DNA of 64,000 nucleotides from Agroathelia rolfsii (Eukaryota > Basidiomycota > Agaricomycetes > Amylocorticiales > Amylocorticiaceae), in the NCBI GenBank assembly GCA_018343915.1, contig JABRWF010000008.1, positions 2,852,001 through 2,916,000 on the forward strand, in the 5' to 3' direction. The notes below the pieces were generated by a model. It ran no database searches and was not told the origin of the DNA. It saw only the letters and a program-made list of their open reading frames with translations. Of this stretch, positions 14,788 to 59,516 are shown one piece after another. The position numbers and the translations under genes were made by a program. The stretch's first letter is position 1, and the number at the start of each line of letters is the position of its first letter.

Positions 14788-14792
14788 ATAAC

Positions 14793-14989
14793 AACATCGG
14801 GGTGCTTAGTGAGAGCGCATATGAAATGATTATAAGGGGTTAACCCAAGAAAAGAAACAGTAACACATTGAAAATGTGGATCAATGGCCAATCATGGCAA
14901 AGAAATGCAAAAATGCAAAAAACAAGGAAAACACCAATAAGGGCAGAAGGAAAAACAAAGTGAAAACAAGAGGGAACATAGCAGGGATA
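14793..14989. other. A-rich sequence, nothing recognised
   Basis: Continuation of the decayed sequence interrupted by S6; no ORF or motif supported. Confidence 0.3.
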
Positions 14990-16873: not shown

Positions 16874-17404
16874 TTAATTTTCCAACTACTGTAACTACTA
16901 CATCAGGTACAGTACATATATATAAAGTACAGTAGTCGAGAAAATGATAAATAAAGAAATAGAGAGAAAACAATAAGGACAATAAGTAATAGCATGCGCC
17001 GTGCACTCTGGTAGTCATGCTATGCTGTGCACAAAGTCGGGATGCATTCCTTTGGAACCATTGGTGGTCTAATTGTCAATCAGAGCGCAATTATGGGGGA
17101 GGTCCAAGCGCGATCTTCCCAGATAGGAAGGATTCACTGGTGTGGGCACATGGCGACTTGGGGAATATTGTTGAGAAGACCAGTCGGCATGTGGAACGCT
17201 CTGATGGACAGAAGCGTGCTATTGATGAGAAGGAAGCACAGGAAGGCACTGTGCACATAGCTCTGGGGAAACATCAGCAGACACATCGGAAATGCTTCCA
17301 ATACACGAGGTACACGGCGACTCAGAAGGGAGGGCATCGCCGGTGACTCTATTGTAGATGTTTGCATGTGTCAATGTGTGCGATTGGGACGTTCGGCGGC
17401 TGGG

Positions 17405-24825: not shown

Positions 24826-26563
24826 TGTTATGAGTTGTAAATTTGGACTATAGATTTTTCATTATTATTTAAAAACATGTATTATATTTCATTTCATTTT
24901 TCTTTTTTATTACCCTTAGAGCGTGGTCTGTAGGCAGTGAGCGGTCCTATGATTGGCCCTCATATGACTAAGCCACATGTCACGACCCGCTAATGCACCT
25001 GGCCACCAAACGTCCCGATCGCGCACATTGACACATGCAAACACCTACGATGGAATCACCAGCGACATCCTCCCTTCTGAGTTGCCGTGTATCCCATGCA
25101 TCGGAAGTGTTTCCAATGTGTCCACTGACGTTTCCCCGGAGCCATGTGCAAGGCCGTCCCTCGCGCTTCCTTCCTATCATCAATGTGCTTCTGTCCATTA
25201 GAGCATTCCACATGCCGACTGGACTTCTCAAAGACATTCCCCAAGTTGCCATGTGCCCGCACCAGCAGATCCTTCCTATCTGGGAAGATTGCGCTTGGTT
25301 CCCCACCTTGATCATGCTCTGATCAACGATCAGACTGCCGATGGTTCCAAAGGAACGCACCCCCGCCTTTGTGCATAGCGTGGCACGACTACTAGAGCGC
25401 ACGGCACACGCTATTACTTATTATCTTTATTGTTTTCTCCTATTTCTTTATTTATCTTTCTGCGACTATTGTATTCTAGTATATATATACTGTACCTGAT
25501 GTAGTAGATACAGTAGTTGGAAAATTAAGTGTGTATCGCCCTAAACAAGCCTTACACCCACTGCATAGCCAGCAGTCAACCTGTGGACTCGAGCATCCTT
25601 GAGTATCTCATCTAGTTATCTTGTCTCTACTTGATCTCTCTGCTCTATACTTGATCTCGCCGGAACACCCGCACTAACCTGCTGTACGCTTGACTGCTTG
25701 CCGCGTCACCCGTATCACCGCAGGCCCCAAGATATCGAAGAGGCAACTCCACGAACCCACAGGGCTGCCATCTGGCAGTGAGCCGCTTAGCAGTTAGTGC
25801 CCCAGGGGCATCACCGCACCACCCGAGCTAGCTGCGAAGGCAGCTCTTGACACTGCACACTACAGGAGTAATTGTGAGTTGTGCATTTCCTGTTCACCAT
25901 TCCGCACAACTCCGGAGTACAAACCTCCGATCACTAACCAATTCCTAATGGATACTAGTTCCGCTACACACCTCTGAGCTTTCACTCCCAAGCTCCTGCG
26001 GAGCTCCACTCCTAAGCATGGAACCTCCGGAAGTGTTGTATCTCTGCACAGCTACCTGTCAAAGTTAGGGAAAAGGTCTTCCCCTGCATACTCTACTTTC
26101 TCTTTATCTTTCCTCTGCGTCAGAACTAGCGCAGAGCTTTTGTAGTAGTATAAGTAGTGTATGTAACTTGTCCTGAAAGGCCAGCTTTGACCTCTTCGCC
26201 TTTAGGCAAGTATTCAGGTTGTATTTCATTAAAGTAGATTACTAATAAAAACTTTGCCTTCAGGGTTCATTAACCTCCGGGCCTAGCCCCACGTCTTAGC
26301 ACATTAACACATTCAATTGGTAGGGTGAAATTCCCTAGAGTAACTAGTTAGATGCGTGACGTGTGATTTGGAGCCTCTGGAACCTCTACCCTCCTCTGAT
26401 AAAAGTCTTTGGAAGCTTTGTAAGATACAAGGAGAGTACCCTTGCCACCCTCAATAGATTAAGGGGATTAGGTAGTATGGGAAAACTTGCATTTTAGGTA
26501 CTTTGTTTAGTGTTGGGAGATTATTTTGATTATCTCCGCATAGTCAAGAGTGATCCCTTGATA
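24826..26563 (+). repeat. Solo S9 LTR (carries R1 copy h)
   Basis: LTR of about 860 bp of its own, TGTTATGAG...CCTTGATA, with target duplication CCAGT (24821-24825, 26564-26568). It resembles the GypB LTR in layout: ATTGGCC and CATATGAC boxes, TATAAG box near 26150, AGCTTTGACCT start motif, and a candidate intron (donor GCAAGT, TACTAAT branch, CAG acceptor). It is interrupted by an R1 at 24978-25852. Confidence 0.85.
24978..25852 (+). repeat. R1 LTR copy h, solo
   Basis: 875-bp forward R1, TGTCACGACC...CTCTTGACA, inside S9. Flanking pentamers CCACA and CTGCA are probably a duplication diverged at two sites. Confidence 0.9.
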
Positions 26564-30735: not shown

Positions 30736-31496
30736 TGTCATGCGCCACATATCCCGATCAATATCCGGGATGTTTTCCAATGCATACCATAATACGCGCT
30801 TACTTGGGTTTCCCGGCGGTGACTTACAATACACCGTCTTGCCAGAACCTCCATGTCACATGCGCCTATCGGAACCAAACCTGATCGCCGATCAACGAAC
30901 TCTGGATGTACCGCGTGGTTTCACTGATGCTCGGCATCAATCAACAACTGCAGCGCTTCTCACTATGCGTGTCAATCCTTCCCTTTCTTATCATTTCCCT
31001 TTTTGACTCATCATTGATTTTATCCATTTTCTTTATTATTCTCACTCTATTGTACATATTCCACTGAGTAGTAGTATATATACATGAATACTTTGTACCT
31101 ACGTACTCTAGTTCGGAAATTCAAATGTCTAGTGACTAAGAACACTTCCCCTCTCATCCCATTTAGTTAGAAGCAGTGACACAAGGGCCAAAGCTATTTG
31201 TTTGGCCAAAGTCCAGACTAAAGCAACTCGCCCTGTCATCCACTAGCGCTTTTGCATCCAACTCCCTTTCCTCCTCTCTTGATCATCATCTCGTTGAGTT
31301 GTGTCGATCGACTTGGCCGTTTGCCAAAGCAGCCGACCCTCTCGATTCATTGCCCATCCTTAGCCTCGCACGTACCCATCACACTGTTGCCTCCGCGAAT
31401 GCCCTTTGCCGCAACTATCTGTCGCCGCATCACCCGTCCGTGTTCTTATTGCGCCGAACCTTCCATCAGGGTCTCCGGCAAGTTTGGTTTGTGATA
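30736..31496 (+). repeat. GypE 5' LTR
   Basis: 761-bp LTR, TGTCATGCG...TTGTGATA (TGACA decayed). TATATATA at 31075-31082 and start motif AGTTCGGAAAT at 31110-31120, again 35 nt downstream. No intron-like repeat of the GypA/GypB kind was seen here. Confidence 0.92.
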
Positions 31497-31539: not shown

Positions 31540-34500
31540 ATGTCTTCTCCTTGTATTTGCCTTAACGCTACATCATTTTCCTTACCTAATGCTCTCTCAT
31601 TAACACTTTATGCTCCTGAAATACCCATGATCATTCCAATGCTTCTGGACTCAGGCTCCACGTACTGCTTCATTGATTTGGCATTCATATCCCGTCACAA
31701 CCTCCCATGTACTCCCTCAGAACCCATTACACTTCAACTCTTTGATGGGTCAAGTAATCATGTCATTACCCAATCTGTTGATTTAGATGTCTGTTTTCCC
31801 TCCAGTGACTGCATGTCGGTACTGTTCTTTGTCACACCTCTCAATTCTTCCTGTTCTGCTGTTTTGGGCCACAACTAGCTCGTCCATTACAATCCGTTGA
31901 TTGATTGGTCGAGCAGCAGTATTACCTTTCGAGATAGCCGGCAGAAAGGTCGAAGGAATATGTCTGTAGATAGCAAGTCCTGCAACGATTCTGCCGCCCA
32001 CTAAGCCACAGTGTCTAATCAGGCATCCAGCGAGATGGCACCCACACCTGTTCCCTTTGGAAGCACTTCCATGCAACCCAAGATGTCGTTAATTGGCTGC
32101 TCAGCATTCCTCCGGGCATGCAGAGCAAGTGGTACCGTGTACCAATTGTCCGCTGAATCAATAGACCTCATGGGATGTTCGTTGTCTCAAGAGCCCGCCG
32201 ACCTTTCCAACATTCCCCCTGAGCACCACAAATTTGCCGACATTTTTAGTGAGTCGAAGTCTGAGCTCCTCGCCCCCCACAGGTCCTACGACCTGAAAAT
32301 TGATCTTGTAGATGGCGCTGCTCTACCACACGGTCCGATATACTCACTGTCCGCTCTTGAGCTCAAAGCTGTCAAGAGCACACCTGTCTCTTGTCACTAA
32401 AACTCAACTAGTGTCTACATCAACCCCTGTAAGGTGCGGGGTAGCCAAGTATCGGCTGTTTTACAACTCCTAAGACCTAGGATACGCGGGTGTACACTTC
32501 TTTGCCTGGTCTCCGCTATCATGAAACTTCTAGCTTTTCAATCACCAGGTGTTACTCCAAGCTTACTAAGCTTTTACACGAGGTCTATTGTCAAGGCAGG
32601 AAATATCTTGTATATGTGGATATGGGTGCAATGTATCTTAACCGCAACAAGCGCAGGGCAATGCCTTTGCTTGTTTGAGTGCACTGAGCACTATGTTATG
32701 TTTACAGCAATGCAAGTGGTCAGCCAAAGGCCTGGACCTGTCTTATGCACGCTAACGAAAGAGGGGCACTAAGCAACCTCTTTAACTACTATAGCACGGA
32801 GCACACAGCAACCCTCTGGCACAGAGCCTAAGGGATTTGGAAGGGGACAGGGAGAGGGAGAGTAAGACAGGTAGTCATGCCTTAAGAGGGGAATGACTCT
32901 GAAGACAAAGTTTTCATTGTGTTAGCGTTTATCTAATACAAAGTACTACTGTGCTTACCTGAAGACAAAGAGAACGAATCTGAGGTCTTCAGGTAGAGGC
33001 ACTACAGGGTTATATACTAATTCTACCTGGTCTGTGTACAGTTACATGGTCTGTGCGCAGTAATGCTAAGTATGGCGTGATATTGCGCCATTATTTGCTA
33101 TAGTGAGTTTAAAGTGGTGTCATGGTCCAGACCCATGCTCTAGACTCTGCTTACATAATGTGTCACATGACTAGTGGTCACATGATGGCCAGTTACATGG
33201 TCGACTGGTCACATGACTTGCTTAGTCATCAGAGTGTACGCTTATGTAATATACAATATATATACCAAAAAATAGAGAAAAATCAGGAAAAATTTGGAAA
33301 AATAATGAAAAATTCAAAATAAAATTATAGTACAATGAGCGACTTGTAACAAAAGCCCTCCAAGAATTCATTGATGAGAACCTCTGCACTGGATTCATTC
33401 GCTCTGCTACTTCAGCACATGGAGCCCCGGTGCTCTTTGTCAAGAAGAAGGATGGTTCCCTTTGTCTTTGTGTCAACTTCAGAGGCCTGAACAAAATCAC
33501 CAAGAAGGATCAATACCCACTCCCACTCATTGCCGACCTCCTCAATGCCCCAAGGAAGGCAAGAATTTACACTAAGATCAACCTTAGGCATGCTTACCAT
33601 CTGGTTCACATAGCTAAAGGAGACAAGTAGAAAACAGTGTTCCGTACTCGTTATGGTTTGTTTGAGTAGTGTGTCATGCCCTTTGGCCTCACGAATGTGC
33701 CGGCAGCCTTCCAGCGCTTCATGAATGACATTTTTTCGGATCTCCTTGATATTTGCGTCATATGCTATCTGAACAACATTTTGATCTACTCGGACTCCCC
33801 AGCAATGCATTCTGCTCACGTTCGGGAAGTTCTTCGTAGATTGCACAAGCATGGTCTTTATGTGCGCGCAGATAAATGTTCTTTTAGTATTGACACAGTT
33901 GAGTATCTAGGCTACATCCTCTCACTGGACGGGCTAACAATGGATGCAGCCAAGGTCAAGGACATCGCCGATTGGCCCGAGCCCAGGAAGGTCAAGGACA
34001 TACAGTCTTTCCTTGGGTTCGCGAATTTTTATCGTCAGTTTATACTCAACTACGCCAATATCATTGTTCCCCTGACATGCCTTACTTATAAGGGTATAAC
34101 TTGGAATTTTGATCAGAAGTGTAAAGATTTGTTCAATGCACTGAAAGCGGCATTTACATCGGTACCCATCCTTACTCATTGGGTGCCTGACAAGCAACTG
34201 ACGATAGAGACCGATACCTCTGACTACACAATCGCAGGTATCTTGTCACTCACCAGAGACGATGGCGAAATTTGCCCTGTTGCTTTCCACTCTTGCATGC
34301 TTGGCCCCGCCGAGCTCAACTACGATACCCATGACAAGGAGTTATTAGCCATCTACGAGGCTTTTTGCGCTTGGCAGCACTACTTGGAGGGCGCCGCCTT
34401 GCCCGTGGATATGGTGACAGACCATAAAAATCTCACGTATTTTTCCACCATGAAACTGCTGACGCGCTGGCAGGCCTGATGGTCGGAATATTTGTCCCAA

Positions 34501-36174
34501 TTCAACATAGTTATTTGCTTTAGGCCTGGGCGCCTCGGCGCTAAGCCTGATGCGCTAACTAGATGATGGGACGTCTACCCTAAAGAGGGGGATAAGGGCT
34601 ACGCCCTTTCCAATCCGCACAATTTAAGACCGGTCTTCATGCAAGAGCAGTTGTCTGCGTCTATTCGGGCGACTTCTCTCATGCTACTCTTGCTACGCGC
34701 AGCGGAACTCTTTGACTTTCACGAGTTGCTGAGTGACATCAAAGCCATGCAAGCTGAAGACCCGGCGTTTATACCTTTGCTCGAAGATCGCCGCAATCCC
34801 TGGTGGACTTTGGACCAGGGTATACTGAAACTAGATGAATGCATATATGTTCCTGATGCTCGGAATCTCCAGCTGTGCATTCTCCAGCTCAAACATGATC
34901 ACATCACCGCAGGGCATCTTGGTCAAGCAAAGACGCTCGCCGCCGTCCATAGTGAGTTCGTCTGGCCCAACCTGCGTGTCTTTGTAGAAGAATATGTTTG
35001 TTCGTGTGTAACCTGCAGGAGAGGCAAATCCGTTTGCCATAGGCCTTATGGTCTGCTCCAGCAGCTGCCGATTCCTGAGCGCCCATAGAATTCCATTTCA
35101 ATGGATTTCATCGAACATCTCCCCCCTTCCTTAGGATTTACCTCTGTTCTCGTTGTTGTCAATTGTCTGACCAAGCAGGCAGTGTTCATCCCCACACATG
35201 ACGAGATTACGTCAAAAGGTTTAGCTCAACTGTTCGTGATGCACATCTTTTCAAAGCACGGTGTTCCTTCATACATCACATTGGACAGAGGCCTGGAGTT
35301 TGTCTCCTATTTCTTCAGGTCTCTGAGTGCATTACTGAACATGCAACTTCACCATACATCCAGGTACCATCCCGAAGGCAATGGCCAAACCGAGCGGGTT
35401 AACCAAACCCTCGAGCAATACCTCTGGATGTACTGCAGTTACCAGCAGGACAACTGGGCGGACCTGCTCCCGCTTGCCGAGTTCACTTATAACAATGCGC
35501 TGCACGACTTGACAGGTGTGTCGCCGTTCTTTGCGAACAAAGGCTACCATCCCAACATCATCGCCGTCAACCCCAAAAAGGATGTGACTTCTGCTCGCGC
35601 TCTTGAGTATACTATTAATCTGGATGATTTACATAAGTTCCTGCGTGAGGAACTGGGTCGGGCTCAGCAATGTTACCAAGGTCCTACAGACAAGCGTCGC
35701 CAAGTCCCTCTTCTCTTCAAAATCGGTGACAAGGCTTTTGTCAAGGCTACCTTCTTCCAAACCACTCGCCCATCCAAGAAGCTCTTGGACAAGTTCCTTG
35801 AACCCTTTGAGATTATCAACCAGGCTGGACCGCTCTCATTCACTCTGAAACTTCCAAGTGACATGTGCGCCGTGCATCCCGTTTTCCACGTATCACAGCT
35901 TGAACCTGCTCACAAGAACACAATTCCTAATCGTATTGAACCACCACCAGTCCCGATAGAAATTGAGGGTGAACTAGAATACAAAATCACTGCAATACTG
36001 GACTCAAAGATCAATAATTGATATCGCTGCAAGCTACTCTACAAAGTACGCTGGGCAGGCTACGAGGGCATATCTGAAGAAGAAGAGTGGTTACCTGCGA
36101 CTGAGCTTGACAATGCTCAGGAACTTCTGGCAGACTTCTACGCCGTATATCCTGACAAGCCTGGTCCTCTCTAG
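31540..36174 (+). pseudogene. GypE Pol (PR-RT-RNaseH-IN-chromodomain), decayed
   Basis: Frame 1 from ATG 31540. Protease has LLDSGSTYCFID near 31650. A solo GypA LTR splits it at 32370-33351. RT spans about 33358-34000; its catalytic motif reads Y-L-N-N at 33766-33777 instead of Y-L-D-D, two G to A changes that would kill polymerase activity. RNase H follows (near 34210-34480), then the integrase zinc finger (H...H, CVTCRRGK), the core with NGQTERVNQTLEQYL near 35390, and a chromodomain region (YKVRWAGYEGISEEEEWLP near 36040-36100). Stops at 31876, 32002, 33628, 33667, 34477, 35086, 36019 and others fit altered Trp or Arg codons. It ends at TAG 36172. Confidence 0.9.
32370..33351 (-). repeat. 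Solo GypA-family LTR in GypE
   Basis: 982-bp reverse-strand LTR with duplication AAAGC (32365-32369, 33352-33356). Removing LTR plus one duplication (987 bp) restores the GypE pol frame. The ORF at 32434-32772 is an LTR frame. Confidence 0.95.
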
Positions 36175-36436: not shown

Positions 36437-36737
36437 TTAGGAGGGCGAGGACGCACCGGAGCCCTTGGTGACCTCCTCCTCCTCACCCCTCTCTTCCCCA
36501 TCCTCGTCCGCTACCTCCTCCATCACCTTGTCATTGACCCTTGCGACCACCGCTTCAGCGTCTTCCTCTCTCGGGGCTCCAGAAGGACCAGCAACCGGAT
36601 TCGCGGCCATCTTGTCCAGTATGGGTGGCTCGACGGCTATGACATGCTGCACGCCGGAGCCCTCATTCACCGCTCAACCTGTTATTCCACCTGCGATGAC
36701 CTCGAGGACCTCGATGATCCTGTTCATGGCTCCTAGG

Positions 36738-37145
36738 TGTTATGAGTTCACTAACCTTAGCCCAATTTTTCTTTTATTTTTTCTTTATTTTATCCCTTCT
36801 TTTTATTGATAGTTAAGTAGTATTACTTAGGTTAGAGTTTAGGTCATGTGATTTGCACATCACATGACTATTACTATATCAACCTCATTATGTATACCTG
36901 TAGACTTTAGACTGTTGTCTTTGTCTATAGGTGAGTAACCTATATATTTCTACTTTACTTCAATTTAACTTTGTCTACAGTTCCCTTTTCAGCACCACTA
37001 AGAAGTGTGAAGCTAACCTAGAGAGGTAGCTAGCCCAGAGAGGTAGCTAGCCTAGAGAGGTAGCTAGGCCAGGTGGACAAGGAGTCCAGCCTTGAGGCCA
37101 TCTTAGTGAGAGCATGAGTGGTGTTGGGAGGGGGACCTCCTAACA
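36738..37145 (+). repeat. Solo S5 LTR in GypE
   Basis: 408-bp LTR, TGTTATGAG...CCTAACA, duplication CTAGG (36733-36737, 37146-37150). It contains a palindromic TCATGTGAT...ATCACATGA region, a TATATC box, a hairpin (CCTGTAGAC/GTCTATAGG) and a candidate 50-nt intron at 36931-36980 bounded by TTTGTCT(A)(T/C)AG repeats. Same family as 62025-62432. A triplicated AGAGAGGTAGCTAG unit lies near 37020-37070. Confidence 0.93.
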
Positions 37146-37230
37146 CTAGGAGTCCCACGACAAGGGGGTCGTTTGCCCTTAGCCCATTCCCAAGTCCGAC
37201 GAGCTCGATCCCATTGCACTTCAAGTGGCT

Positions 37231-38076
37231 TGTCAAGGGTCTACTCCTTGACTTCACTGCCTTGGGTGTAGAGGGCCTACTAATAATGTTATCAAACAAT
37301 AAACTCTCTTAACACCAAATCTAAGTACCTAAAGGAATAAGTTTTCCCACAGATATGCAAATCCCTTATCTATTGAGGTGCACCGGGTACTCTGCTTATT
37401 CTCTTACAATGCTCTTAGAATGTTTCACACGCTTATGCACACAAGAGGGGATTTGCACCACCTCCAAGTAGGATAGAGAGAGAGATGAAAGAGAAGGGGG
37501 GGGGGCTAGGACGTAGGGCCTAGGCCTAAGGAATATAACCCTGAAGGCAAAGTGTTATTAGTAATCTATGGAATACAAACTCTTTACTTGCCTGAAGGCG
37601 AAGAGGTCGAAGCTGAGCTCTTCAGGACAAGTTACATATACTATTTATACTACTAGTAAATGGTCCATGCGCAGCTTTGATGGTCTGTATGCAGAGGGAG
37701 TTAGAAGTATTTTTGTGGCAATGCAGGGGAAGATCTTTTAGCCTAACTCCACCGGGCATCCATGTGGAGATCCGTTTCTGGATCAGTACCAGTAACCATT
37801 AGGAATTGATCAGGGAAGGAAGGCTGTGTTCCTAGGCTGTGCGCAATGATGAAAGTGAAAGTGCGTACAGCCCCGAGATTACTCCTGTGACATGTGGCTT
37901 GGAACACGTGAGGGCCAATCACATGACCACTGCACTGCCCACAGTCCACGCCCTAAAGGGTAATTTTATAAGGAAAGAGAAAGAAAAGTAAAGAAAATTT
38001 GATAACTAATTAAATAATTGTCCAAATATTACAAGAAAATAACCAAAAAATTGGCAAAAATTTCCTTCTCATAACA
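37231..38076 (-). repeat. GypF 3' LTR
   Basis: 846-bp LTR (complement TGTTATGAGAAGG...CCTTGACA). The adjacent complement of TTACCCCCTTCC is the polypurine tract (38077-38088). Confidence 0.95.
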
Positions 38077-40593
38077 TTACCCCCTTCCTAAGGGGATTTC
38101 CTCTGGAACATCCCAAGTTCCCATGTTCCTCCAATCCTTTCCATGGTTTCCATGAAGTTTTCTATTGGTTGAAATGGAAGATCTGCAAAGACTGCAGCCA
38201 AAAGGCGTTTAGGTACTTTAGGGTTCTTTTTGTGGAATTCTTTGATCAGTTTCGGGGCGTTTGTGATGTTGGTTTCTTTTTCCCATGAATCTTCTCCTGG
38301 GTATCCCTTCCATTCAACCAAATATTCTAACTTCTTTGTCCTCGGGCTTAGGCGGTTGTCTTTGATTCGCAGGACCTCGTGTTCTTCTTCTCCTTTGACT
38401 TCGATAACTTCCGGAATAGGTGCAAGAGGTCTGGACTCAACCTGAATGTGTGGTTTGATTAGTGACACATGGAAAATATTGTGTATTGTCCATCTTTTTG
38501 GGATTGCGAGCCGTACTGCCTGGTTTCCGATGAGTTCCATGATTTTGTATGGTCTAATCCACTTTGCTCCAAGCTTCTTTGAGGGTTGTGCCAGCTTGAT
38601 GTTTTCAGTACTTAGCCAGACCTTGTTTCCCACCATATACTTTGGAATTTCTACTGCATGTTTATCGAAGAAATATTTTATTCGACTTGCTGCATGATCT
38701 AAAGCTGCTTTGGTGTCTTCCTGAAGTTCTTTGACCTTTTCCGTCCATAGTTGTGCCCCTTCCGTACTTGGGATTCTTGCCGTTGTAAGATTCATTCGGG
38801 GAGAGAAGCCGTAGTTCATTTCGAATGGGGAGGAGCCTGTTGATGCTTGCTGTCAGTTATTGAGGGCAAACTCGGCCAGGGGGAGAAGTCCTGCCCAGTT
38901 GTCTTACCAATAAGAGACATAGTTCCGCAGATAAACTTCTACTTCCTAGTTAAGGCATTCAGTTTGTCCGTCTGATTGCGGGTAATAAGCGGTTGAGAGA
39001 GATGTTTTGATTTCTAATTGCTTGTGAATCTCCCGCATAACCTTTCCGGCAAACTGGGGGCCTTGGTCAGAAGTCCATTGTTGGGGAAGTCCGTGTAACC
39101 AAAAAACATGCGTAAGGTATAGGTCCACCATTTCGGATACCATGATTGCTTCTACGCAAGGAATGAGGTGATATATCTTAGTCAGCCTATCTACTACTAC
39201 CAAAATTGAATTGTATCCCTGGGATTCAGGGAGCTTTATGATCATATCCGAGGTGACATGTTCCCAGGGCCGTTCTGGGGTTGGTAGAGGTGCTAGGGGT
39301 CCTACTGGCATTTACCTAGCCGTTTTGGATGCTAAGCAATTAGGGCATGATGCTACATAGTTGTTAACTGCCTTAGTGAGTCCAGGCCACAAGTAATTCC
39401 TTAAGACAAGTTCTAAGGTTTTGTAGCGGCCGGGGTGTCCTGCAACGGGTACATCATGGTGTAAGTGGATGATGTCGTTTCGTAGGAGAGTATCACGTGG
39501 GACGTAGACCTTTCCAAGATGTAAGATTAAGCCATTCTCTTCATTCCACTCTTCTAGTCCCTTCTGCAGTTTAACTGGGCCTAGTTCCTTGATTTTTCCC
39601 AGAGCGTTAGCAATTTCAGCATCCTTGGCTTTGGCTCGAATTTGGTCTAGAATACCCTTCTCTCCCTGAATCTCAACGTGCCCTCTTCTTGTGGCATTGA
39701 TTCAGAACAACTTAGGGTCTAGTACTATTTGGTCTAAGTTGTCTTCTTTGTCTGATCATTGAAAGTCCGGTCGTCTGGAGAGGGGGTCAGCACATCCATT
39801 TTCTGATCCTCGGAGGTAGGAGATAGTGAACCAGAATTCGGAAAGGAAAAGGGACCATCTTGCTTAGCGTCATGTAAGATTTCTTGCAGTTTTCCAATAT
39901 TCCAAATTCTTGTGGTCTGTACAAATTTCGAAGGGATGTGGAAGTCCGATAAGGTAGTGGTGCCATGCATCAAGAGCCCTGATGATTCCCAACATTTCTT
40001 TGTCCCAGATGTCATAATTTCGCTCTGCATCATTCATGGCTTGGGAAAGGAATGCAATTGGTCTCCATGAATTGTCTTCTTGTTTTTGGAGGAGTACTGC
40101 CCCAGTAGCAAAGTTGGAGGCGTCAGTCTCTAAACGTGTTTTGGTGGTTTGGTTGTATGCTCCTAATACTGGAGCCAAAGTAAAAGCCTTCTTTAGACCG
40201 TCGAAAGCTTCTTGTTCTTCTAGTCCCCATTTCTATTCAGTTTTCCCTGTTAGCCAATCTAAGGGTTTACAGATTTGGGCAAAGTTTTTGATGAACCGTC
40301 AGTAGTAATTGGCAAGTCCGTGGAAGTGCCGAACATCAGAGACTTTCTGGGGTAATGGCCATTCGAGGACTGCCTTGACCTTTTCCGGGGTTATACGGAT
40401 TGAACCAAATGAAACCAGGGCACCTAGGATGTCTACTTCAGGCACGTCATACTCAAACTTTTCGAGGTTTGCAAAGAGGTCATTGTCCTTAAGAACCCTT
40501 AATACTTCTAGGACTCGTTTACGTAGCTCTCCTTCTGTTTGCGCGCCAATGATAATATCATCTATGTAGTGAACCAGCCATCCTAGTTAGTTG

Positions 40594-40765
40594 TGTTGTG
40601 TTTTGGTTGCATTATCACAGTCAATTAGTTATACTTACATAATTTAGTCATACTCATGTATTTGTTACTACCATCACACCTAATGTGACTCTCTGTCTTT
40701 GCCACCACCCATCATCAGTGTCTGTGTCTGTGTCTGTGCCTCTTTCCCCATCTACTGCTTCAATA
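40594..40765 (+). repeat. Cop2 5' LTR
   Basis: 172 bp, matching 42063-42234 with a few C/T differences. Confidence 0.93.
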
Positions 40766-40782
40766 GGTTATGAGCCCTGAGC
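40766..40782 (+). other. Cop2 primer-binding site (half-tRNA-iMet)
   Basis: GGTTATGAGCCCTGAGC directly after the LTR; identical over 16 nt to the Cop1 site at 366-381. Confidence 0.75.
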
Positions 40783-40903
40783 TCCTCTAAACTTCACTAT
40801 ACCTCTTAACTCTGCTTTTGTTTTTGCCTCTCTTCAATAGCCCTAATCAGCACTATTCATCTCCTCCCTATTCATCACCACCATCATATTTACTCTCTTC
40901 ACA

Positions 40904-41883
40904 ATGGTTCACCTTGATACTCGTGCCCTTGATGGTGTTACTCTCATTACCCCTGATACATGGCGCCGCTCTGAGATTGATCTCAAAATGGCCTTCCTTG
41001 CCATTGGCCTTCCTGGCATCATTAATGGTGCTAAACCCACTGAACCATCTACACTTGCAGATTAGAACCAGCTTAATAGTAGGGTTATGGGCCTCTTATA
41101 CCAGAGGGTGGATGACCAGTTCAAATACCTCATTGAAAACTCCACCACTGCTGAGGAAGCATACACAGCCCTTAAAGCTGAGTTTGTTAAACCTTCCATA
41201 TGTGCATATATCCAAGCCCGCCAGGCCCTTTACACCATTGTCCACGACCCCTCTCGCCCTATCTCTGCCTTTATCTCTTCCATTGAGGATGCTGTTAAAG
41301 CTCTCACAGCCCTTGGTGTCACTATCACTGAGGATGAGCAGAAAGATGTCCTGCTATTCCGTCTTCATGAATCCTACACTGTTGTTCACACCACCATCTA
41401 TTCCCAACCTACTGAACCTAGCCTATCCATAATCAAGGCTATATTAAAAGGAGCAGACAATAACACAATGTCTTCTGATGATCTTTGGGTTAAACCAGAG
41501 CCTATCAGTACTGCCTTACGTACACAGACAATCCGTGGCTGTGCCCCTTCCCATTCAAAGGATTCTGGATCTCCTTCATCCTCATCCTCTCGTGGTAGCC
41601 GACGGGATAAAAAAGGATATGATTGGTGTGACACTACTTGAGAAGGTGTTTGTCATTGTTGTGGACATTATGGATATATTGCAGCTCGTTGTATGTATTC
41701 TATGCCTCAATAGGTTAAGGATTGGATTATGGCCTCTGCTTCCCCTACTCATAAAGAAGCCTATGATCAGATTGCTAGATTTGTATCTATCTTACCTCCC
41801 TTACTAGATCAGCATATAGAGACTGCTAGTACAGCCCATCCTATCTTCAGTACAGAAGCTAATGGACCTTCTCTACTTATTTA
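40904..41883 (+). pseudogene. Cop2 Gag
   Basis: Copia-type Gag, frame 2, from ATG 40904 (MVHLDTRALDG). A gag-polypeptide region spans about 41080-41460 (MGLLYQRVDDQFKYLIE, then ARQALYTIVHDPSRPISAF). A Ser-rich linker follows, then a zinc knuckle near 41653-41694 reading C-X2-C-X4-Y-X4-C, with the expected His replaced by Tyr. Stops at 41063 (TAG), 41639 (TGA), 41711 (TAG) and 41882 (TAG) all sit where Trp is plausible (TGG to TAG/TGA), so decay is strikingly one-sided. No other domain follows before the purine tract. Confidence 0.85.
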
Positions 41884-42062
41884 GAGAAATAGAGGATTAG
41901 GTGGGAGTTTTAGAGATAGTTTTGGTTGGGTGGGAGTTTTTCATTTGCTGCTTTTCTTGGGTTTCCTTTTCCTTTTCTTTTCTTTTCTTATATCCTACTA
42001 TATTTACTAAGTCACTTTTCTATCTTTTCTTTCTTTCTTTCTGTGACTCTGCAAGGTGGGAG

Positions 42063-42234
42063 TGTTGTGTTTTGGTTGCATCGTCACAGTCAATTAGTTA
42101 CACTTACATAATTTAGTCACACTCATGTATTTGTTACTACCATCACACCTAATGTGACTCTCTGTCTTTGCCACCACCCATCATCAGTGTCTGTGTCTAT
42201 GTCTGTACCTCTTTCCCCATCTACTGCTTCAATA
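42063..42234 (+). repeat. Cop2 3' LTR
   Basis: 172-bp partner of 40594-40765. Confidence 0.93.
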
Positions 42235-43266
42235 GGTTGAACTTGTAGAACAGGTCGTCCATCATTGTCTGCATAGTGGCAGGTGCATTACAGAGACCAA
42301 ACGTCATTACAGTGGGCTCAAACAGTCCTTTGTTGGTAATAAAGGTAGCTTTGTGCTCGTCACCTTCTTGGATCCGGATGTTGTTAAAGCCCCATTGTAA
42401 ATCGATTTTACAGAAGGTCTGGAACTTAGTTATTTTGTCCTGAAGTTTGGAGATAAGAGGGAGGGGGTATGCATTCTCAATTGTTTCTGCATTGAGCTTG
42501 TGGTAATCTTGAACTGGACGGAGCAAACCGTTTTTCTTTGGAACAAAGAACATCGGGGTGGTAATTGGACTCTTAGACTTTCTAATGTACCCTTTTTTGA
42601 GGTTCTCTTTGAGATAATCAACAAGCGCTTCTTCTTCTTTGATAGATAGCGGGTATGCTTTACTTCTCCGGAGTTGGGCTCCATCTTTAAGCTCGATTTT
42701 GTGGTCCCAGTGTTTTCTGAGTGGTAATCTTTGAGAGGCTTCTTTTGAGAAGACCGATGTATACTCAGATGCCCATTCTGGCAAGAGACTGGAGGAGATA
42801 GCTAGGCGGTCTGGGTCCGCTACCTTGCCTGCTGACCAGTCTATCACCGGGTTTTCCAACTAGAGCCAGTCAATTCCTAGGATCATGTTTTCGGGCCCTA
42901 TATCTATGACTAAGAAGGGAAGCTTCTTTTGAATTCCGCCGATACTTGTTTTGAGCACGGCAATCTCTTTAATACTTCCTTGGGCATTGAGGGAATTGTC
43001 TATATTATATACAGGAATTGTTCGAGGTAATTTTTTTGTATGTATTTTGTTTTCTTTAATAAATCGGGAGTAAATAAACGAAGAGGAGGCTCCTGAGTCA
43101 ATCATTGCTACAGTTACAAGAGAGGAAAATTGTCCATGGAACATAATGGGAATATGGAGGTGCTATCCATGCACACCAGAAATTGAAACAGAGTTTAAGG
43201 AAAGAAATGAGGAGAAACAATTTGCGAGATAGGGGTCGGCCGAAATAGCCCTTTCCATTGACCCTT

Positions 43267-44730
43267 CTAAAAACCCGCCTTGTCTTTGAAGGCGGCTAGT
43301 GCTATCGCTTGTTGCTCAACCAATGCTTGTAGGTCGGCCATTGTCATCATTGAAGAGCCTTTATTGATGTCGTTGGCAGTGGCCAAAGCGCCTAGCTGGT
43401 CTGTAGAAGGTGGTGCCGGTGTTGTCGTGGCCTGGACCCTGGGTCTAGATCCTTGATATCTTGAGACATGAGGATTTGTACAGTTGGAAGCAAAATGCCC
43501 CCATTGTTGACAATTGTAGCATTGTACTGTACTTAAGTCTCTAGGAGGGCAATGACTTCCTTGCAATATAGCAGGAACTAGGGTGGAAGGTTGGGCTTGT
43601 GCCGCATTGATGGTGATTGGATTAGCGGCTGTTCCCTGATTCTGGAAACATGGTCTAGGCTTCCAGCCATCTGTCCAGATTCCTGCATTACGTAAACCTT
43701 CTTCTGCATCGACGGCGGCTTCTATAAGGTGTTCTAGGCTGTCGCGCCGTTCCTTTGGGTATCCGCCAATTACTCCTTTAATTTTTGGGGACAGGGCTTG
43801 CCAATAACAGACCCTTAAGTCTTCTCCTGACAGCTTTGTTTGATTGGCAAGGGTAGAAAAAGTGGCTGTGAAGTCTGCCACCAAGGAAGTCCCTTGTTTC
43901 AAGTCCTGGAGTTTTTGGAGGGCGATCCTTCCAAAATCTCTTGCTCCATACAGTGCCTTGAACTTGGTGTAGAGATCTCTTTCAAAATTGAAACCCTTAG
44001 TATCAATGGCGTCATCAAACTTTTGGCTCCAAGCTTTTGGGGCTCCCTCCAGAAGTCCTACAAAGAAGTGTGCCTTTGTATAATCTGAAGAATAAATCTT
44101 TGGGTTCAGCTTGATGTGGTTTTCAAATCTGAACACAAAAGATTGGTATTTGGACCAATCGCCTAAGAATTTCTCTAGGGGTTGGCCAATTTCCTTTGGA
44201 GTTGAGGTGGCTGCGACAGTAGCGGGTGCAGGCTGTTCTCGTTCTAACAGGTCAGCGAAGCGCACCTGTGTCTCCTGCATCTATTCCATGGAGGTTTGGA
44301 TGTGTGCTTGGTTTGCTTGTAGGAGTGCCAAGATCTGTCCTAGTTCCTGAGGTAACAACATAGTGGGGGGCTCTTCTTTGACTGTTTCTCTGTATTTTTC
44401 TTTTCGGCATTCTCAGCGACTTTTGGAAGGAGAGGGGTGTGAGACAATGGGGAACTTGGGGTACGATGCTTCTGTAGTATAGCAGCGGCAGAATTCAGAA
44501 GGTGAGGGGTATTCAGAGGGAGCTTCTTCTTCTCCTTCTGGTGTCTTAGGTGGCAATGCTTGGGTGGAGAGAACTTCTTCTCCTGATTCTTCTTCTTCTT
44601 CTTCAGAAATATGTGGAGCCAAGCTCGATACAACTTCCCTTGTGACTTCTGGTGGGGATGTGGTAGACTTAGTGGCCCAAGGGACCAGTACTTCTTTGGG
44701 CTGATAAGATGTGCCCTTACGTGTACTCAT
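43267..44730 (-). pseudogene. GypF Gag
   Basis: Reverse-strand Gag of about 488 codons starting at ATG 44730 (MSTRKGTSYQPKE). Acidic region with EEEEEESGEE near 44610-44590. Capsid-like region (KYQSFVFRFENHIKLNPKIY onward) near 44160-43700. Zinc knuckle CYNCQQWGHFASNC near 43520-43480. It ends AFKDKAGF at TAG 43267-43269. Two in-frame stops: TGA at 44413-44415 and TAG just before 44280. Gag drives particle assembly and RNA packaging. Confidence 0.92.
43270..43276 (-). other. Gag-Pol -1 frameshift heptamer in GypF
   Basis: Reverse complement reads G GGT TTT followed by TAG, as in GypB. Confidence 0.65.
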
Positions 44731-45209
44731 TCACAGAGCTTTTTGTAATGATTTTCTTCGTCACCGGCAGTCGTGCTGGTTTCCAAATGGATAGCAGGAT
44801 TTTTTTCTTTGGCTGGGGCTAGAGCTTGCCCATATAGTAGTCATACAAAAAATCACATAAAAGTTATGAATGGTGGGGGGAGTAGTAAAAGGTGCCACTC
44901 ATGCTTAGCAGTGATAAACTTTGATCCCCATAAGGGACTCCTAGAACACCAAGCTTTTTAGGCTTGTATTGTGCTTCGGATACAGCCAAGAAATCAGGTA
45001 GGATGTATACCCTATTCTTGTCTAAACAGGGTTGTCAACAGGCTTTGGAGGGCACTGCACAATGTCTTCCTGAAGTAGTTCACTGCTTACATGCTCAGAA
45101 GGTGTTCTTTTTGTAAAACAAAGAAAAGGGGTGCTCTTTATAAGCGATTACTACTTACTTCTTCTCAGACCGTGGAAGTCCGAGGGATGTCCTGGTAGCT
45201 TCGACCTAA
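44731..45209 (-). other. GypF 5' leader with self-primer PBS
   Basis: PBS AGGTCGAAGCT (complement of 45197-45207) lies 2 nt inside the LTR. It pairs with AGCTTTGACCT (complement of 45576-45586) with one G:U pair. The rest of the leader is non-coding and homologous to the GypB leader. Confidence 0.7.
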
Positions 45210-46048
45210 TGTCAAGGGTCTACTCCTTGACTTCACTGCCTTGGGCATGGAGGGCCTACTAACAATGTTATCAAACAATAAACTCTCTTAATACTAAATC
45301 TAAGTACCTAAGGGAACAAGTTTTCCCACAGATATGCAAATCCCTTATCTATTGGGGTGCACCGGGTACTCTGCTTATTCTCTTACGACGCTCTTAGAAT
45401 GTTTCACATGCTTATGCATACAAGAGGGGATTTGCACCACCTCCAAGTAGGATAGAGAGAGAGATGAAAGAGAAGGGGGGGGGCTAGGACGTAGGGCCTA
45501 AGGAATATAACTCTGAAGGCGAAGTGTTATTAGTAATCTATGGAATACAAACTCTTTACTTGCCTGAAGATGAAGAGGTCAAAGCTGAGCTCTTCAGGAC
45601 AAGTTACATGCACTATTTATACTACTAGTAAATGGTCTGTGCGCAGCTTTGATAGTCTGTGCGCAGAGGGAGTTAGAAGTATTTTTGTGGCAATGCAAGG
45701 GAAGATCTTTTAGCCTAACTCTACCAGGCATCCGTGTGGAGATCCGTTTCCGGATCAGTACCAGTAACCGTTAGGAATTTATCAGGGAAGGAAGGCTATG
45801 TTCCTAGGCTATGTGCAATGATAAAAGTGGAAGTGCATATAGCCCCAAGATTACTCCTGTGACGTGTGGCTTGGAACATGTGAGGGCCAATCACATGACC
45901 ACTGCACTGCCCACAGTCCATGCCCTAAAGGGTAATTTTATAAGGAAAGAGAAAGAAAAGTAAAGAAAATTTGATAACTAATTAAATAATTGTCCAAATA
46001 TTACAAGAAAATAACCGAAAAATTGGCAAAAATTTCCTTCTCATGACA
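45210..46048 (-). repeat. GypF 5' LTR
   Basis: 839-bp LTR. On the reverse strand: TATAAATA starting at 45621, start motif 45586-45576 (35 nt downstream), candidate 51-nt intron 45563-45513 with GCAAGT donor, TACTAAT branch and TTCAG acceptor. Confidence 0.95.
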
Positions 46049-46539
46049 TGGCTGTTCTGACAAGGGATGCATTTGGCCCCGCCGTCCCAAGGCCACTTGC
46101 AGGCCTTTGAGCGTCTTTGGCATGCGTCGCACGCCTATCCACAATGTTAAGGAAAAATTTTGAAATTAATTATTAGGGGACTCACCACCAGAGGCAATGG
46201 CTCTGTTGCCCTTTGCTTCACCGCGGGGGCCTCGACTTTGATGTTGCTGGCACGCTTGCATGACTTGCCACCCTCTGGCATTATCCAGGCTGGTTTCATA
46301 TACTCCGTCTTCCTCGCCGCCTCCTCCTTGCATTATTTCTCCTCTTCCTCCTGCTTTCTCTTTTCTTCCACCGCGTGCTCCGCCTCCTCGCATCTTCGTT
46401 GTGCCACGTCCTGCTCTTCATGCAGACATGCCATCATCTCCTCATGCTTGCGCATTTGACGCTCGAGTTCCTCCTCTTGGTCGATTTCGGAGGAGGGGAG
46501 CCTGGCTTTACTTTTTCCTTTGTTGTTACGAGGCGCCAT

Positions 46540-46664
46540 GTTTGTTGTGAAGCAAGAGTAGTCTGCACAGTCACAGCATCACGCCGTTGAGTCAAGGTTT
46601 TAGAACTCCACAATCCTGTAGCGTAGGCTACCCTTCAAGGGCTCAGGGCCTAAGAGGGGGATAC
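46540..46664 (+). other. GypE 3' non-coding end and polypurine tract
   Basis: Between the antisense gene start and the 3' LTR, ending CCTAAGAGGGGGATAC (46649-46664). A similar tract flanks R1 copy a at 14092, linking the R1 and GypE families. Any promoter of the antisense gene should lie here or in the LTR. Confidence 0.7.
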
Positions 46665-48433
46665 TGTCACACGCTGCATATCCCGATCAATATCTGGGAC
46701 GTTTTCCAATGCACACCACAATATGCGCTTACTCGGGTTTCCCAGCGGTGATGTCAAGGCTTATGCTCTTGACTTAACCAAACGACGTAACCCTCTCGAA
46801 GGTACGAGGGTGGACTGTAAGGTCCCTTTTACACGTATATATGTCTGGTCTTTAATAGGCGCATACGTGCTCCCATTGCTATCCTTTGTAATAGTAACCC
46901 TGGAATTCCTACTTTGCTAGGATTGCATTCAGTACTCTTGCCAAGGGCTTTCCATGTGCTCTCTTTGCATCAAATAGTTATTTGCTAGGTTTTCTTACTT
47001 GGAGTAGGCGGCTTAGCCCTCCGTACTACAACTAACGCCTAAGAGGACTTGTTTCTGCCTCTACCTGAACGAACAGGGTTTTGTCATGCGCAATTACCTC
47101 CTTGTATTGAGGACTTATGTTTGACTTATACCCTCTGGTACTAGGGCTTACGTATTCTACTTAGATGCCCTTAAGGCCTTACACTAAATAGAGGGGAGAG
47201 AGAGAAAGGGGATAGTGGGCTAGGACATAGATAAGCCTGAAGGCAAAAGTATATTAGCTTTACATAAGTATACAAGAGGTGGGGTGCCCTTACCTGAAGG
47301 TGAAAAGGTCGAAGCTAAGGTTCAGGTAAGGGCTACATACTTGTATTTATACGTAAAGTGAAGGGCCCGTGCGCAGCCTTGATGGTCTGTGTGCAGCGGG
47401 GATCATAAGCGGAAATGACTAGAATGCAGAGGCAGTGCTTTGTACCTAAGTCTGATGAGCAACTGATTGGAATGATGAGTCTAGTACTCCTTAGTAATCG
47501 CACAGTGATCGGAACGACCCTGGTTCCTGAGTCTAGACCTTTTGATGAAAAAGAATGATCTAGACTCTGCCTTCCTAATATACTCTTGTCATGAGCACTC
47601 CTGTCACGTGGGGCTAACACAGCCAGTCATGTGCGAGTCAAGATGTCGCCTGCAAGGTATTTTGTCCATATCTCAATAAATAAAAATCGTAAAAATACAG
47701 TAAAAATATGCACAAGTTCGTAAGAAAAAGGCGAAAAATGTCCAACTCATAACAGGTGACTTATGATACACCGTCTCACCGGAACCTCCATATCGCACGC
47801 GCCTGTCAGAACCAAACCTGATTGCCGATCAACAAACTCCGGATACACCATGTGGTTTCACTAATGCCCAGCATCGATCAACAACTGCAGTGCTTCTCAC
47901 CATGCGTGTCAATCCTTCCCTTTCTTATCATTTCCCTTTTTGACTCATTATTGATTTTATCCATTTTCTTTATTATTCTCACTCTATTGTACATATTCCA
48001 CTGAGTAGTAGTATATATACATGAATACTTTGTACCTACATACTCTAGTTCAGAAATTCAAATGTCTAGTGACTAAGAACACTTCCCCTCTCATCCCATT
48101 TAGTTGGAAGCAGTGACACAAGGGCCAAAGCCGTTCATTTGGCCGAAGTCCAGACTAAAGCAACTCGCCCCGTTATTTGCTAGCGCTTTCGCATCCAACT
48201 CCCTTTCCTCCTCTCTTGATTATTGTCTCGTTGAGTCACATCGATCAACTTGGCCGTTTGCCGAAGCAGCCGACTCTCTCGATTCATTGCCCATCCTTAG
48301 CCTTGCGCATATGCATCACGCTGTTGCCTCCGCAAGTGCCCTTTGCCACAACCATCTGTCGCCACATTGCCTGTCTGTATTCTCATTGTGCTGAACCTTC
48401 CGTCAGGGTCTCCAGTGAGTTTGGTTCGTGACA
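46665..48433 (+). repeat. GypE 3' LTR (carries solo GypD LTR)
   Basis: 761 bp of its own, TGTCACACG...TCGTGACA, equal in length to the 5' LTR; split at 46752-47754. Confidence 0.92.
46752..47754 (-). repeat. Solo GypD LTR in GypE LTR
   Basis: 1003-bp LTR with duplication GGTGA (46747-46751, 47755-47759). Reverse-strand reading has TATAAATA, start motif AGCTTCGACCT 35 nt downstream, and a candidate intron (GTAAGGG donor, CTAAT branch, CCTTCAG acceptor). Confidence 0.94.
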
Positions 48434-48492: not shown

Positions 48493-49230
48493 ACAATACT
48501 CAATAGGGTTCTTATATAGAGAATGTACACCTCTACTTAAGCCTAATGTAAAAAATACATTGTCACAACCAAAATAGAGTTAGGTTTTCCATTAAATACT
48601 TGATCCCTAAGTACTTAGAGTAGGGATTAGATTTTGTATTGAAAACCTGATCCAAATTACTTAATAAGGGGATCAGGTTTTAAATTGTAATACTTGACCC
48701 CTTAATATTTGAAGTAGGGATCAAGTTTTGTATAAAAAACTTAATCCCATAGTACTAGATAAGTGGGTCAGGTTTTGAGTTACAATACTTAACCCCTAAG
48801 TAATTAGAGAAGGGGTTATGTTTTGTATGAAAATATTTAACCCTAAAGTACTTAATAAGGAAATTATATTTTGAGTCAAAATACTTAATCTAAGAGTATT
48901 TAATAAGGATTAGATTTTAAATCAAAATACCTGTTTTATAAGTACTTAAAATAGAGATTAGATTTTGTATTAAAATACTTAAATACTTAGAAAGAGGGTT
49001 AAATTTTGTATTAGAATACTTAATTTTAAAGTATCAAGATCTACCTTTTAAACTCTTTAAATACTACTATATAAAGCTAAAAATAGCTAAAATTAAATTA
49101 TCTTAATATTATTATATAGTTAAAAGATTTGAAAATTAACTCTTGGGATACTACTATATATAGCTAAAATTAACCCTTTAATTATTGCTAGATAAAGTTT
49201 AGTAGCTAAAAGCTAATTCTAGTATATAGC
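48493..49230. repeat. AT-rich degenerate minisatellite
   Basis: From about 48590 to 49030 a unit of roughly 50-60 bp recurs imperfectly, built around TACTTAATCCC, AAGTACTTAG and GGGATCAGGTTTTG blocks. No gene seen. Confidence 0.6.
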
Positions 49231-49563
49231 TAAAATACTTAAAAGTTAACACTCTATATACTACTAAATATAGCTAAAAATAGGCAAAAGTTGACCCTCT
49301 ATATACTACTAGGTATAGCTAAAAATAGACAAAAGTTGACCCTTTATATACTACTAGGTATAGCTAAAAATAGACAAAAGTTAACCCTCTATATACTGCT
49401 AGGTATAGCTAAAAATAGACAAAAGTTGACCCTCTATATATTGCTAGGTATAGCTAAAAATAGACAAAAGTTGACCCTCTATGTACTGCTAGATATAGCT
49501 AAAAATAGGCAAAAGTTGACCCTCTATATACTGCTAGGTATAGCTAAAATACTTAAAAGTTGA
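49231..49563. repeat. 45-bp tandem repeat
   Basis: About seven copies of a 45-bp unit containing GACCCTCTATATACT and GGTATAGCTAAAAATAG. Because 45 is a multiple of three, it creates a 90-codon frame with a 15-residue repeat (LTLYILLGIAKNRQK) that is not a credible gene. Confidence 0.9.
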
Positions 49564-49721
49564 CCCCTAAATACACCCTTATAAAATACTGGATCATCCT
49601 TTATTATATGTCTATTCTAGGGGTCAATTGCCTAATTTGGTATTTGAGCTGGTTTAATTTCCTAAAAGAAACATAATCCCTAAAAAATGACCCCCTGCAA
49701 TTTTTCATGACTCCATGTAGT
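49564..49721. other. AT-rich flank of GypD
   Basis: No feature. GTAGT (49717-49721) is the expected left target duplication of GypD; its partner lies beyond the window. Confidence 0.5.
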
Positions 49722-58635: not shown

Positions 58636-58642
58636 ATACACG

Positions 58643-59516
58643 TGTCACAACCCGCCAATGCACCCGGCCACCAAACATCCCGATCGCACACATCGACACA
58701 CGCAAACATCTACAACGGAGTCACCAGTGATGCCCTCCCTTCTGAGTCACTATGTACCCTGTGCATCGGAAGCGTTTCCAATGTGTCCACCGACATTTCC
58801 CCGGAGCCATGTGCATGGCCACTCTTTGCACTTCCTTCCCATCACTGGCACGCTTCTGCCTATTAGAGTGTTCCACATGCTGACTGGACTTCCCAAAGAC
58901 ATTCCCCGAGTTGCCATGTGCCTGTACCAGCGGATCCTTCCTATCTAGGAAGATCGCACTTGGACTCTCCTTATGATCACGCTCTGATCGATAATCAGAC
59001 CGCCAATGGTTCCGAAGGAATGCACCCCTGCCTTCGTGCATAGTGTGGCATGACTACCAGAGTGCGCAGCGCGCACTATTACTTATTGTCTCTATTGTTT
59101 TCTCCCATTTCTTTATTTATCTTTCTGCGACTACTGTATTCTAGTATATAGTACTGTACCTGATGTAGTAGATATAGTAGTCGGAAAATTAAGTGTGTTT
59201 GGCCCTAAACAAGCCCTACACCCGCTGCATAGCCAGCGGTCAATCTGTGGACTCGAGCGTCCTCGAGTATCTCGTCTAGCACCTTGTCTCTGGCTTGACA
59301 TCTCTTGCTCTACACTTGATCTTGCTGGACCTCCCGTTTAACCTGCCGTATGCTTGACTGCTCACCACGCCACCCATATTGCCACAGGCCCCAAGATATC
59401 AAAGAGGCAACTCTACGAATCCATAGGGCTGCCATCTGGCAGTGAGCCACTTAGCAGTTAGCACCCCAAGGGCATCGCCGCACTGCCCAAGCTAGCTGCG
59501 AAGGCAGCTCTTAACA
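58643..59516 (+). repeat. R1 LTR copy i, mismatched flanks
   Basis: 874-bp forward R1 lying 7 bp after GypB. Flanking pentamers ACACG (left) and CTAGG (right) do not match, and the GypD integrase core is missing at this point. It is probably a hybrid LTR left by recombination between two R1 insertions in GypD. Confidence 0.9.

What the first reader, a model, noticed from the sequence alone, without database searches (positions are those of the whole stretch)
36437..46539. Antisense, spliced Zn2Cys6-type gene inside the gag-less gypsy element GypE
With the nested S5 and GypF insertions removed, the reverse strand between GypE pol and its 3' LTR holds a two-exon gene of about 271 codons. Exon 1 is exactly 118 codons, the 51-nt intron has GTGAGT...ATAG borders, and the frame continues. 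Exon 2 encodes six cysteines spaced 2-6-10-2-6, the GAL4-type zinc-cluster pattern, followed by an acidic tail. Only two stops break it, comparable to or fewer than in pol, and the spacing and splice sites are unlikely by chance. A retroelement carrying an antisense transcription-factor-like or nucleocapsid-like protein is unusual; it might control the LTR promoter or substitute for gag functions.
Basis: partly seen in the sequence, partly recalled or inferred. Interest (0 to 1): 0.88.

Follow-up and report, generated by a model that had tools for sequence, protein, structure and literature searches.

The report
Antisense zinc-cluster gene in fungal retrotransposons
A group of fungal jumping genes carries, on the strand opposite to its replication genes, a small intron-containing gene under selection that looks like a DNA-binding regulator, probably used by the element to control itself.

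Summary
In the window it is broken by two stops and two nested insertions with 5-bp duplications; sister copy L011 lacks both insertions. All four GypE copies found carry it (one without the zinc part). Of 18 related chromodomain-gypsy pol loci, 17 have it downstream and antisense; 12 sister-group loci examined lack it within 1.5 kb. A second LTR family (B), with no pol found in the one copy read between its LTRs, carries it antisense too. In 12 B copies exon lengths are multiples of three (11/12, 12/12) while intron lengths vary freely (54-58 nt), and dN/dS is 0.23 (0.19-0.28); GypE against B gives 0.18. The cysteines are C-x2-C-x6-C-x9/10-C-x2-C-x6-C; PF00172 is the top Pfam family but under its cut-off, and the predicted fold resembles Gal4, Put3, Ppr1 and Leu3, without significant E-values. 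Best reading: a self-encoded, spliced antisense DNA-binding regulator of the element, like HTLV-1 HBZ or plant antisense aORFs but with a GAL4-type module. Expression, binding and LTR control are untested. GypE has no gag (2 of 2 copies readable there); gag replacement is possible, not supported.

The parts
30736..31496 (+). GypE 5' LTR (761 bp, TGTCA...TGATA)
   Evidence: 89% identical to the 3' LTR over the aligned 677 bp
31540..36021 (+). GypE pol remnant: protease (weak Pfam match), RT, RNase H, integrase; starts 44 bp after the LTR with no gag; interrupted by a solo LTR at about 32373-33351
   Evidence: Pfam; 5' end read in the window and L079; L079 lacks the solo LTR
36437..36737 (-). 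antisense gene, exon 2, 3' part (acidic tail), one TGA
   Evidence: 55% match to the B-family exon 2 at 36440-36736
36738..37145 (+). nested insertion S5, 5-bp duplication CTAGG at 36733-36737 and 37146-37150
   Evidence: sequence; absent in L011
37151..37230 (-). antisense gene, exon 2, middle part with the sixth Cys (SHLKC)
   Evidence: sequence; direct repeats from 37231 and 45210; absent in L011
46054..46134 (-). antisense gene, exon 2, 5' part: five of the six Cys (CDACQRRSKACKWPWDGGAKCIPC)
46135..46185 (-). 51-nt intron GTGAGT...GGATAG
   Evidence: borders GTRAGT...AG kept in 16 of 16 rows counted
46186..46539 (-). antisense gene, exon 1, 118 codons, charged coiled-coil-like, one TAA at about 46333-46335
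46652..46664 (+). polypurine tract of GypE, shared with family B
46665..48433 (+). GypE 3' LTR, split by a 1003-bp solo LTR of another family at 46752-47754

Best explanation
A clade of chromodomain Ty3/gypsy elements in this fungus carries a conserved two-exon gene antisense between pol and the 3' LTR. Its protein (about 270-345 aa) has a charged coiled-coil-like N-terminus, a GAL4-like six-cysteine module and an acidic tail. Most likely it is a DNA-binding regulator of the element's own LTR transcription, made from an antisense promoter in or near the 3' LTR, working like HTLV-1 HBZ or plant antisense aORFs. Shown: gene, splice borders, selection, clade-wide presence, retention in a second LTR family with no pol found in the copy read. 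Supported by prediction: the Zn2Cys6-like fold. Inferred: promoter position, DNA binding, LTR control, cis preference.
For: Frame kept across introns of varying length: exon 1 a multiple of three in 11 of 12 B copies, exon 2 in 12 of 12, introns 54-58 nt, GTRAGT...AG in 16 of 16 rows. dN/dS 0.231 (codon bootstrap 0.190-0.282) in 12 B copies and 0.179 (0.114-0.257) for three GypE copies against B, exon 1; in B and GypE-by-B every other frame and the opposite strand give higher values. In the Zn segment of B no transversion at codon positions 1 or 2; 66 of 72 Cys codons kept in 12 B copies. 17 of 18 pol loci of one 100/100 clade have it downstream and antisense; the 12 sister-group loci examined do not within 1.5 kb. 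Intron at the same place, phase 0, just before the first Cys, in GypE/B, L053 and L054. PF00172 matched by 8 of 8 members at E <= 1, best E 8.5e-4. Predicted fold: 10 of 13 Foldseek matches are Zn2Cys6 factors, as are the 15 VIA rows shown, which are drawn from Foldseek's own list (14 by title or recall, one labelled only 'DNA-binding protein'). ATG 125 bp from the 3' LTR in GypE. Tail net charge -22 in 80 residues of one B protein.
Confidence: 0.57

Rival explanations
1. It stands in for Gag or nucleocapsid: the element has no gag, and the zinc module plus coiled coil packages RNA.
For: No gag between the 5' LTR and protease in 2 of 2 GypE copies readable there. The L053 pol frame of 1296 aa leaves little room for a gag (inference).
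Against: The six-Cys spacing and predicted fold match DNA-binding Zn2Cys6 factors, not a CCHC knuckle (recalled). The gene is antisense, so it is not made from the genomic RNA. The 5' ends of the sibling families were not read.
Confidence: 0.1
2. It is an anti-silencing or host-directed factor: it binds element or host DNA to lift repression or change host genes rather than drive its own LTR.
For: DNA-binding-like module under selection. Kept in an element family with no pol found in the copy read. Differences between copies look like CpG decay by eye.
Against: B would gain from it only if it acts mainly in cis or on many relatives at once (inference).
Confidence: 0.2
3. Only the antisense RNA matters (double-stranded RNA or transcriptional interference); the protein is incidental.
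For: Antisense transcripts of retroelements can act so (review PMC7264820, passages read).
Against: Frame and codon-position constraint, dN/dS 0.18-0.24, frame kept across introns of varying length.
Confidence: 0.04
4. Chance open frame, mirror of a sense-strand gene, or a host gene caught once.
For: Sense-strand mirror frames are also long and open.
Against: The opposite strand's best frame gives dN/dS 0.26-0.50 against 0.17-0.26 for the gene frame over the same stretches, always lower for the gene. Present in three pol families and in B.
Confidence: 0.02

Closest known systems
brtn of Boty-like gypsy elements, Botrytis cinerea (Zhao et al. 2011, seen only as a reference entry; passages in PMC8365987)
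   Same: Additional antisense gene in a fungal gypsy element
   Different: Sequence of brtn not available here, so homology is untested; I have seen no zinc cluster reported for it
Antisense aORFs of plant Retand/Grande elements, often with TRP28 (PF04195) (PMC11963269, passages read)
   Different: No TRP28 here; six-Cys zinc module, splice conserved, chromoviral pol, fungal host
HBZ of HTLV-1 (starts of abstracts in a search listing)
   Same: Antisense-strand gene; a transcription-factor-like protein
   Different: bZIP there, zinc cluster here; 3' LTR promoter not tested here
Fungal Zn2Cys6 transcription factors (PF00172: Gal4, Put3, Ppr1, Leu3)
   Same: Cysteine spacing, predicted fold, acidic region
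   Different: Below the Pfam cut-off; module in mid-protein; encoded by a retroelement

Membership tests
Zn2Cys6 binuclear cluster (PF00172) | Six Cys, C-x2-C-x6-C-x5..12-C-x2-C-x6..8-C (pattern recalled) | tested here: met
   x9 in GypE and B, x10 in L053 and L054
Zn2Cys6 binuclear cluster (PF00172) | Score over the curated Pfam cut-off | tested here: not met
   Best E 8.5e-4 over 8 members; member 1 has 19 bits against 21; whole proteins E 0.16-0.23 or no hit
Zn2Cys6 binuclear cluster (PF00172) | Fold of the cluster | tested here: inconclusive
Zn2Cys6 binuclear cluster (PF00172) | Two zinc ions bound, CGG-type DNA sites (recalled) | not testable with these tools
   needs protein
[quoted passage not shown]
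   17 of 18 clade pol loci antisense and downstream; 3' LTR beyond the gene seen in four GypE copies; not read in the L053 family, and in L054 only a similar purine tract at the edge of the locus
Retand-type aORF with TRP28 | PF04195 domain | tested here: not met
   no PF04195 in Pfam scans of four proteins
HBZ-like antisense retroviral gene | Transcript from an antisense promoter in the 3' LTR, spliced | not testable with these tools
   splice borders conserved; no RNA data
HBZ-like antisense retroviral gene | bZIP domain | tested here: not met
   no bZIP family in Pfam scans of four proteins
brtn | Homology to brtn | not tested
   sequence not held here
Chromovirus (Ty3/gypsy) | Chromodomain at the end of integrase | tested here: met
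   PF00385 over cut-off in L050, L053, L054, the three scanned
Chromovirus (Ty3/gypsy) | gag present | tested here: not met
   GypE: protease frame starts 44 bp after the LTR in the window, same in L079; siblings' 5' ends not read
Non-autonomous LTR element (family B) | LTRs present, pol absent | tested here: met
   One copy read between its LTRs: about 3.9 kb internal, LTR ends 98% identical; no pol match in its gene locus by tblastn; the last 876 bases checked only by ORF listing

The most novel reading that the evidence does not exclude
A whole clade of fungal chromoviruses runs on its own spliced, antisense GAL4-type transcription factor, a convergent counterpart of HBZ. The factor is so useful to its carrier that an element family with no pol keeps it as its only selected gene, implying that it acts largely in cis on the LTR next to it; in the gag-less autonomous partners it may have taken over part of the role of Gag.
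Probability: 0.3. Interest if true: 0.88.

Novelty: new variant of a known kind. Interest (0 to 1): 0.7.

Why it matters
Antisense genes of LTR retrotransposons are known in plants and in Botrytis, but the two plant papers read in passages call their function unknown. Here the protein has a recognisable DNA-binding-like module, an intron that shows the coding strand, and clear selection, so LTR control becomes directly testable with one protein and two LTRs. Retention of the gene by elements without pol raises a sharp evolutionary question: why a parasite of another element's machinery keeps a regulator.

Tried and rejected
Homologue searches with one B-copy protein (read with its in-frame intron; whole, and its zinc region) found nothing at E <= 0.001 among the candidates scored (7997 and 173); the first was probably crowded by low-complexity words. 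The four-sequence profile then found three proteins of JGI origin, none of which covers the zinc module. A viral-contig scan found none. The idea that gene-bearing LTRs are rich in CGG/CCG sites was dropped; CpG content explains it. L054-family copies are mostly dead: exon 2 dN/dS 0.43 (lowest frame), exon 1 0.64 with two other frames lower. GypE alone gives 0.79 for exon 1. The AF2 model of the whole exon 2 is poor (pLDDT 51). No target duplication was found for GypE itself (GGCAT against TTGTG, read by eye). Rows dropped before the frame counts: L012, L024, L025 (internal insertions) and L028 (matches only its first 302 bases); L026 was counted for splice borders only; exon 2 lengths of L009, L010, L011 are not multiples of three (479, 500, 458: inserts, truncation or indel) and L026 (531) is interrupted by other sequence; the L019 exon 2 (492) ends in LTR sequence, so its multiple of three may be chance. 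The claim that I found no antisense Zn2Cys6 gene of this kind in print rests on the capped listings, open-licence papers only.
Full report
1. Setting. The window is C8:2852001-2916000 of an unnamed 37.7-Mb genome held as G000. PF00172, a family known from fungi, matches 20 places in it and 0 of 14 control genomes, so I take the host as a fungus (inference; species unknown).

2. The element. GypE has a 5' LTR at 30736-31496 and a 3' LTR at 46665-46751 plus 47755-48433, split by a 1003-bp solo LTR. The protease frame starts 44 bp after the LTR with no gag before it, in the window and in the second GypE copy read there, L079. Pol holds a protease (weak match, under the cut-off), RT, RNase H and integrase and, in the sister copy L050, a chromodomain over its cut-off.

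3. The gene in the window. On the minus strand, exon 1 is 46186-46539, the intron 46135-46185, and exon 2 is in three pieces: 46054-46134, 37151-37230 and 36437-36737. Two insertions separate them, each flanked by a 5-bp duplication read: 37231-46048 (TGGCT) and 36738-37145 (CTAGG). L011, a natural GypE copy on C1, runs through both sites without them. There are two stops, one TAA in exon 1 and one TGA in the tail. The cysteine spacing is 2-6-9-2-6, not 2-6-10-2-6.

4. Other copies. DNA of the gene's 5' part matches 27 places, and exon 1 protein 22 places, all on C1, C4 and C8, the window included. Integrase finds four close GypE copies (87% or more, the window included), then 14 siblings at 50-69%, then a large group at 34-41% (129 of 414 candidates scored, so counts are lower bounds). 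Using gene positions, 17 of the 18 loci L049-L066 have the gene downstream and antisense: 13 within 1 kb of the integrase match, two at 1.5-2.6 kb, two at 8.5-9.6 kb, where an insertion is assumed; L055 has none. The GypE copy on C4 keeps only exon 1 and the tail end of the region; its zinc part is deleted. In a tree of 30 integrases these 18 form one clade (100/100), and the other 12 fetched (L067-L078) form the other side; none of those 12 has the gene within 1.5 kb, except that L068 has a B-type fragment beyond its LTR. The remaining members of that large group were not fetched. Two L054-type gene copies on C6 have no listed pol near them.

5. Family B. The other gene copies, mostly 68-76% identical to GypE in DNA, share with GypE only the gene and its immediate flanks. 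In the copies compared their surroundings are alike and belong to another LTR family: an LTR of about 880 bp, and in the copy on C8 near 3.657 Mb an internal part of about 3.9 kb between LTR ends that are 98% identical over 484 bp. No pol was found there: tblastn with twelve pol queries found none in its gene locus L018, and the ORFs listed for the whole internal part show none (by eye). Its polypurine tract matches that of GypE, which shows that the gene is antisense there too. Intact genes exist in this family.

6. Is it a gene? In 12 B copies exon 1 is 363, 384, 387 or 396 nt in 11 and 398 in one; exon 2 is 486, 492 or 456 nt, always a multiple of three (the 492 of L019 ends in LTR sequence); introns are 54-58 nt without that constraint; GTRAGT...AG is kept in 16 of 16 rows, including three GypE copies and L026. 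The frame can survive such intron changes only if the intron is removed. dN/dS in the 12 B copies is 0.216 (exon 1), 0.240 (exon 2), 0.231 together (0.190-0.282), and 0.17 in the zinc segment with no transversion at codon positions 1 or 2. Other frames and the opposite strand give 0.36-1.8. Leaving out changes that CpG decay could explain keeps the pattern (0.071, 0.058, 0.192 for positions 1, 2, 3 of exon 1). GypE against eight B copies gives 0.18 in exon 1 (three GypE copies) and in the first 115 codons of exon 2 (L011 only), with silent sites near saturation. Within GypE alone exon 1 gives 0.79, as expected of decaying copies. Of 72 Cys codons in 12 B copies, 66 are kept. For the L054 family exon 2 gives 0.43, still the lowest frame, while exon 1 gives 0.64 with two other frames lower.

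8. Beyond this record. A profile of four spliced natural proteins finds three proteins of JGI origin on short contigs (E 3e-15 to 4e-12). Two match the tail and one matches exon 1; none covers the zinc module. The exon 1 relative ends ...STEAAGSEAREVP followed by what looks like a read-through of the intron position, as L054 would. Their species is not given.

9. Mechanism. Shown: gene, splice borders, selection, position, clade-wide presence. Supported by prediction: DNA-binding module. Inferred: an antisense promoter in or near the 3' LTR (ATG 125 bp from it in GypE; in L054 about 160 bp from a similar purine tract at the edge of its locus; but about 2.4 kb in B), nuclear action, control of the LTR. 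Family B is the telling case: elements without pol usually shed genes that act in trans, so retention suggests an advantage in cis (inference from general knowledge).

10. What is known. [quoted passage not shown] Retand TRP28 in PMC11963269, passages) and in Botrytis Boty-like elements (brtn: passages in PMC8365987; the original paper not seen). HBZ of HTLV-1 is the retroviral parallel (starts of abstracts in the listing). I found no report of a zinc-cluster antisense gene in the listings. Hence: new variant of a known kind.

Noticed in passing
G000 contigs C1-C8: Zn_clus matches come in pairs of equal or nearly equal score on C4/C5, C1/C2, C6/C7 and C8/C2, which looks like two haplotypes or nuclei. 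The GypE/B gene copies lie only on C1, C4 and C8 (27 places), the L054-type copies mostly on C6 (8 of 12 rows).
   Followed up: no
C1, C4, C8 ends: 12 of the 27 DNA places of the gene lie within 100 kb of a contig end, about 4% of those three contigs, so family B and GypE seem to gather near chromosome ends. Some places are pieces of one copy.
   Followed up: partly
window 17403-18280, 19530-20407, 24977-25852, 58642-59520: LTR copies of family B in the window; at 14041-15002 (-) the 3' internal end of a B-like element with the same polypurine tract.
   Followed up: partly
gene copies, alignment: Many differences between copies are C/T before G or G/A after C (by eye), as expected of CpG methylation decay.
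   Followed up: partly
L018 476-758 and 3039-3521: Family B has 76-bp and 30-bp tandem repeats on either side of the gene, as Retand elements have in the same region.
   Followed up: no
window 49187-49621: 45-bp tandem repeat, seven overlapping register copies.
   Followed up: no
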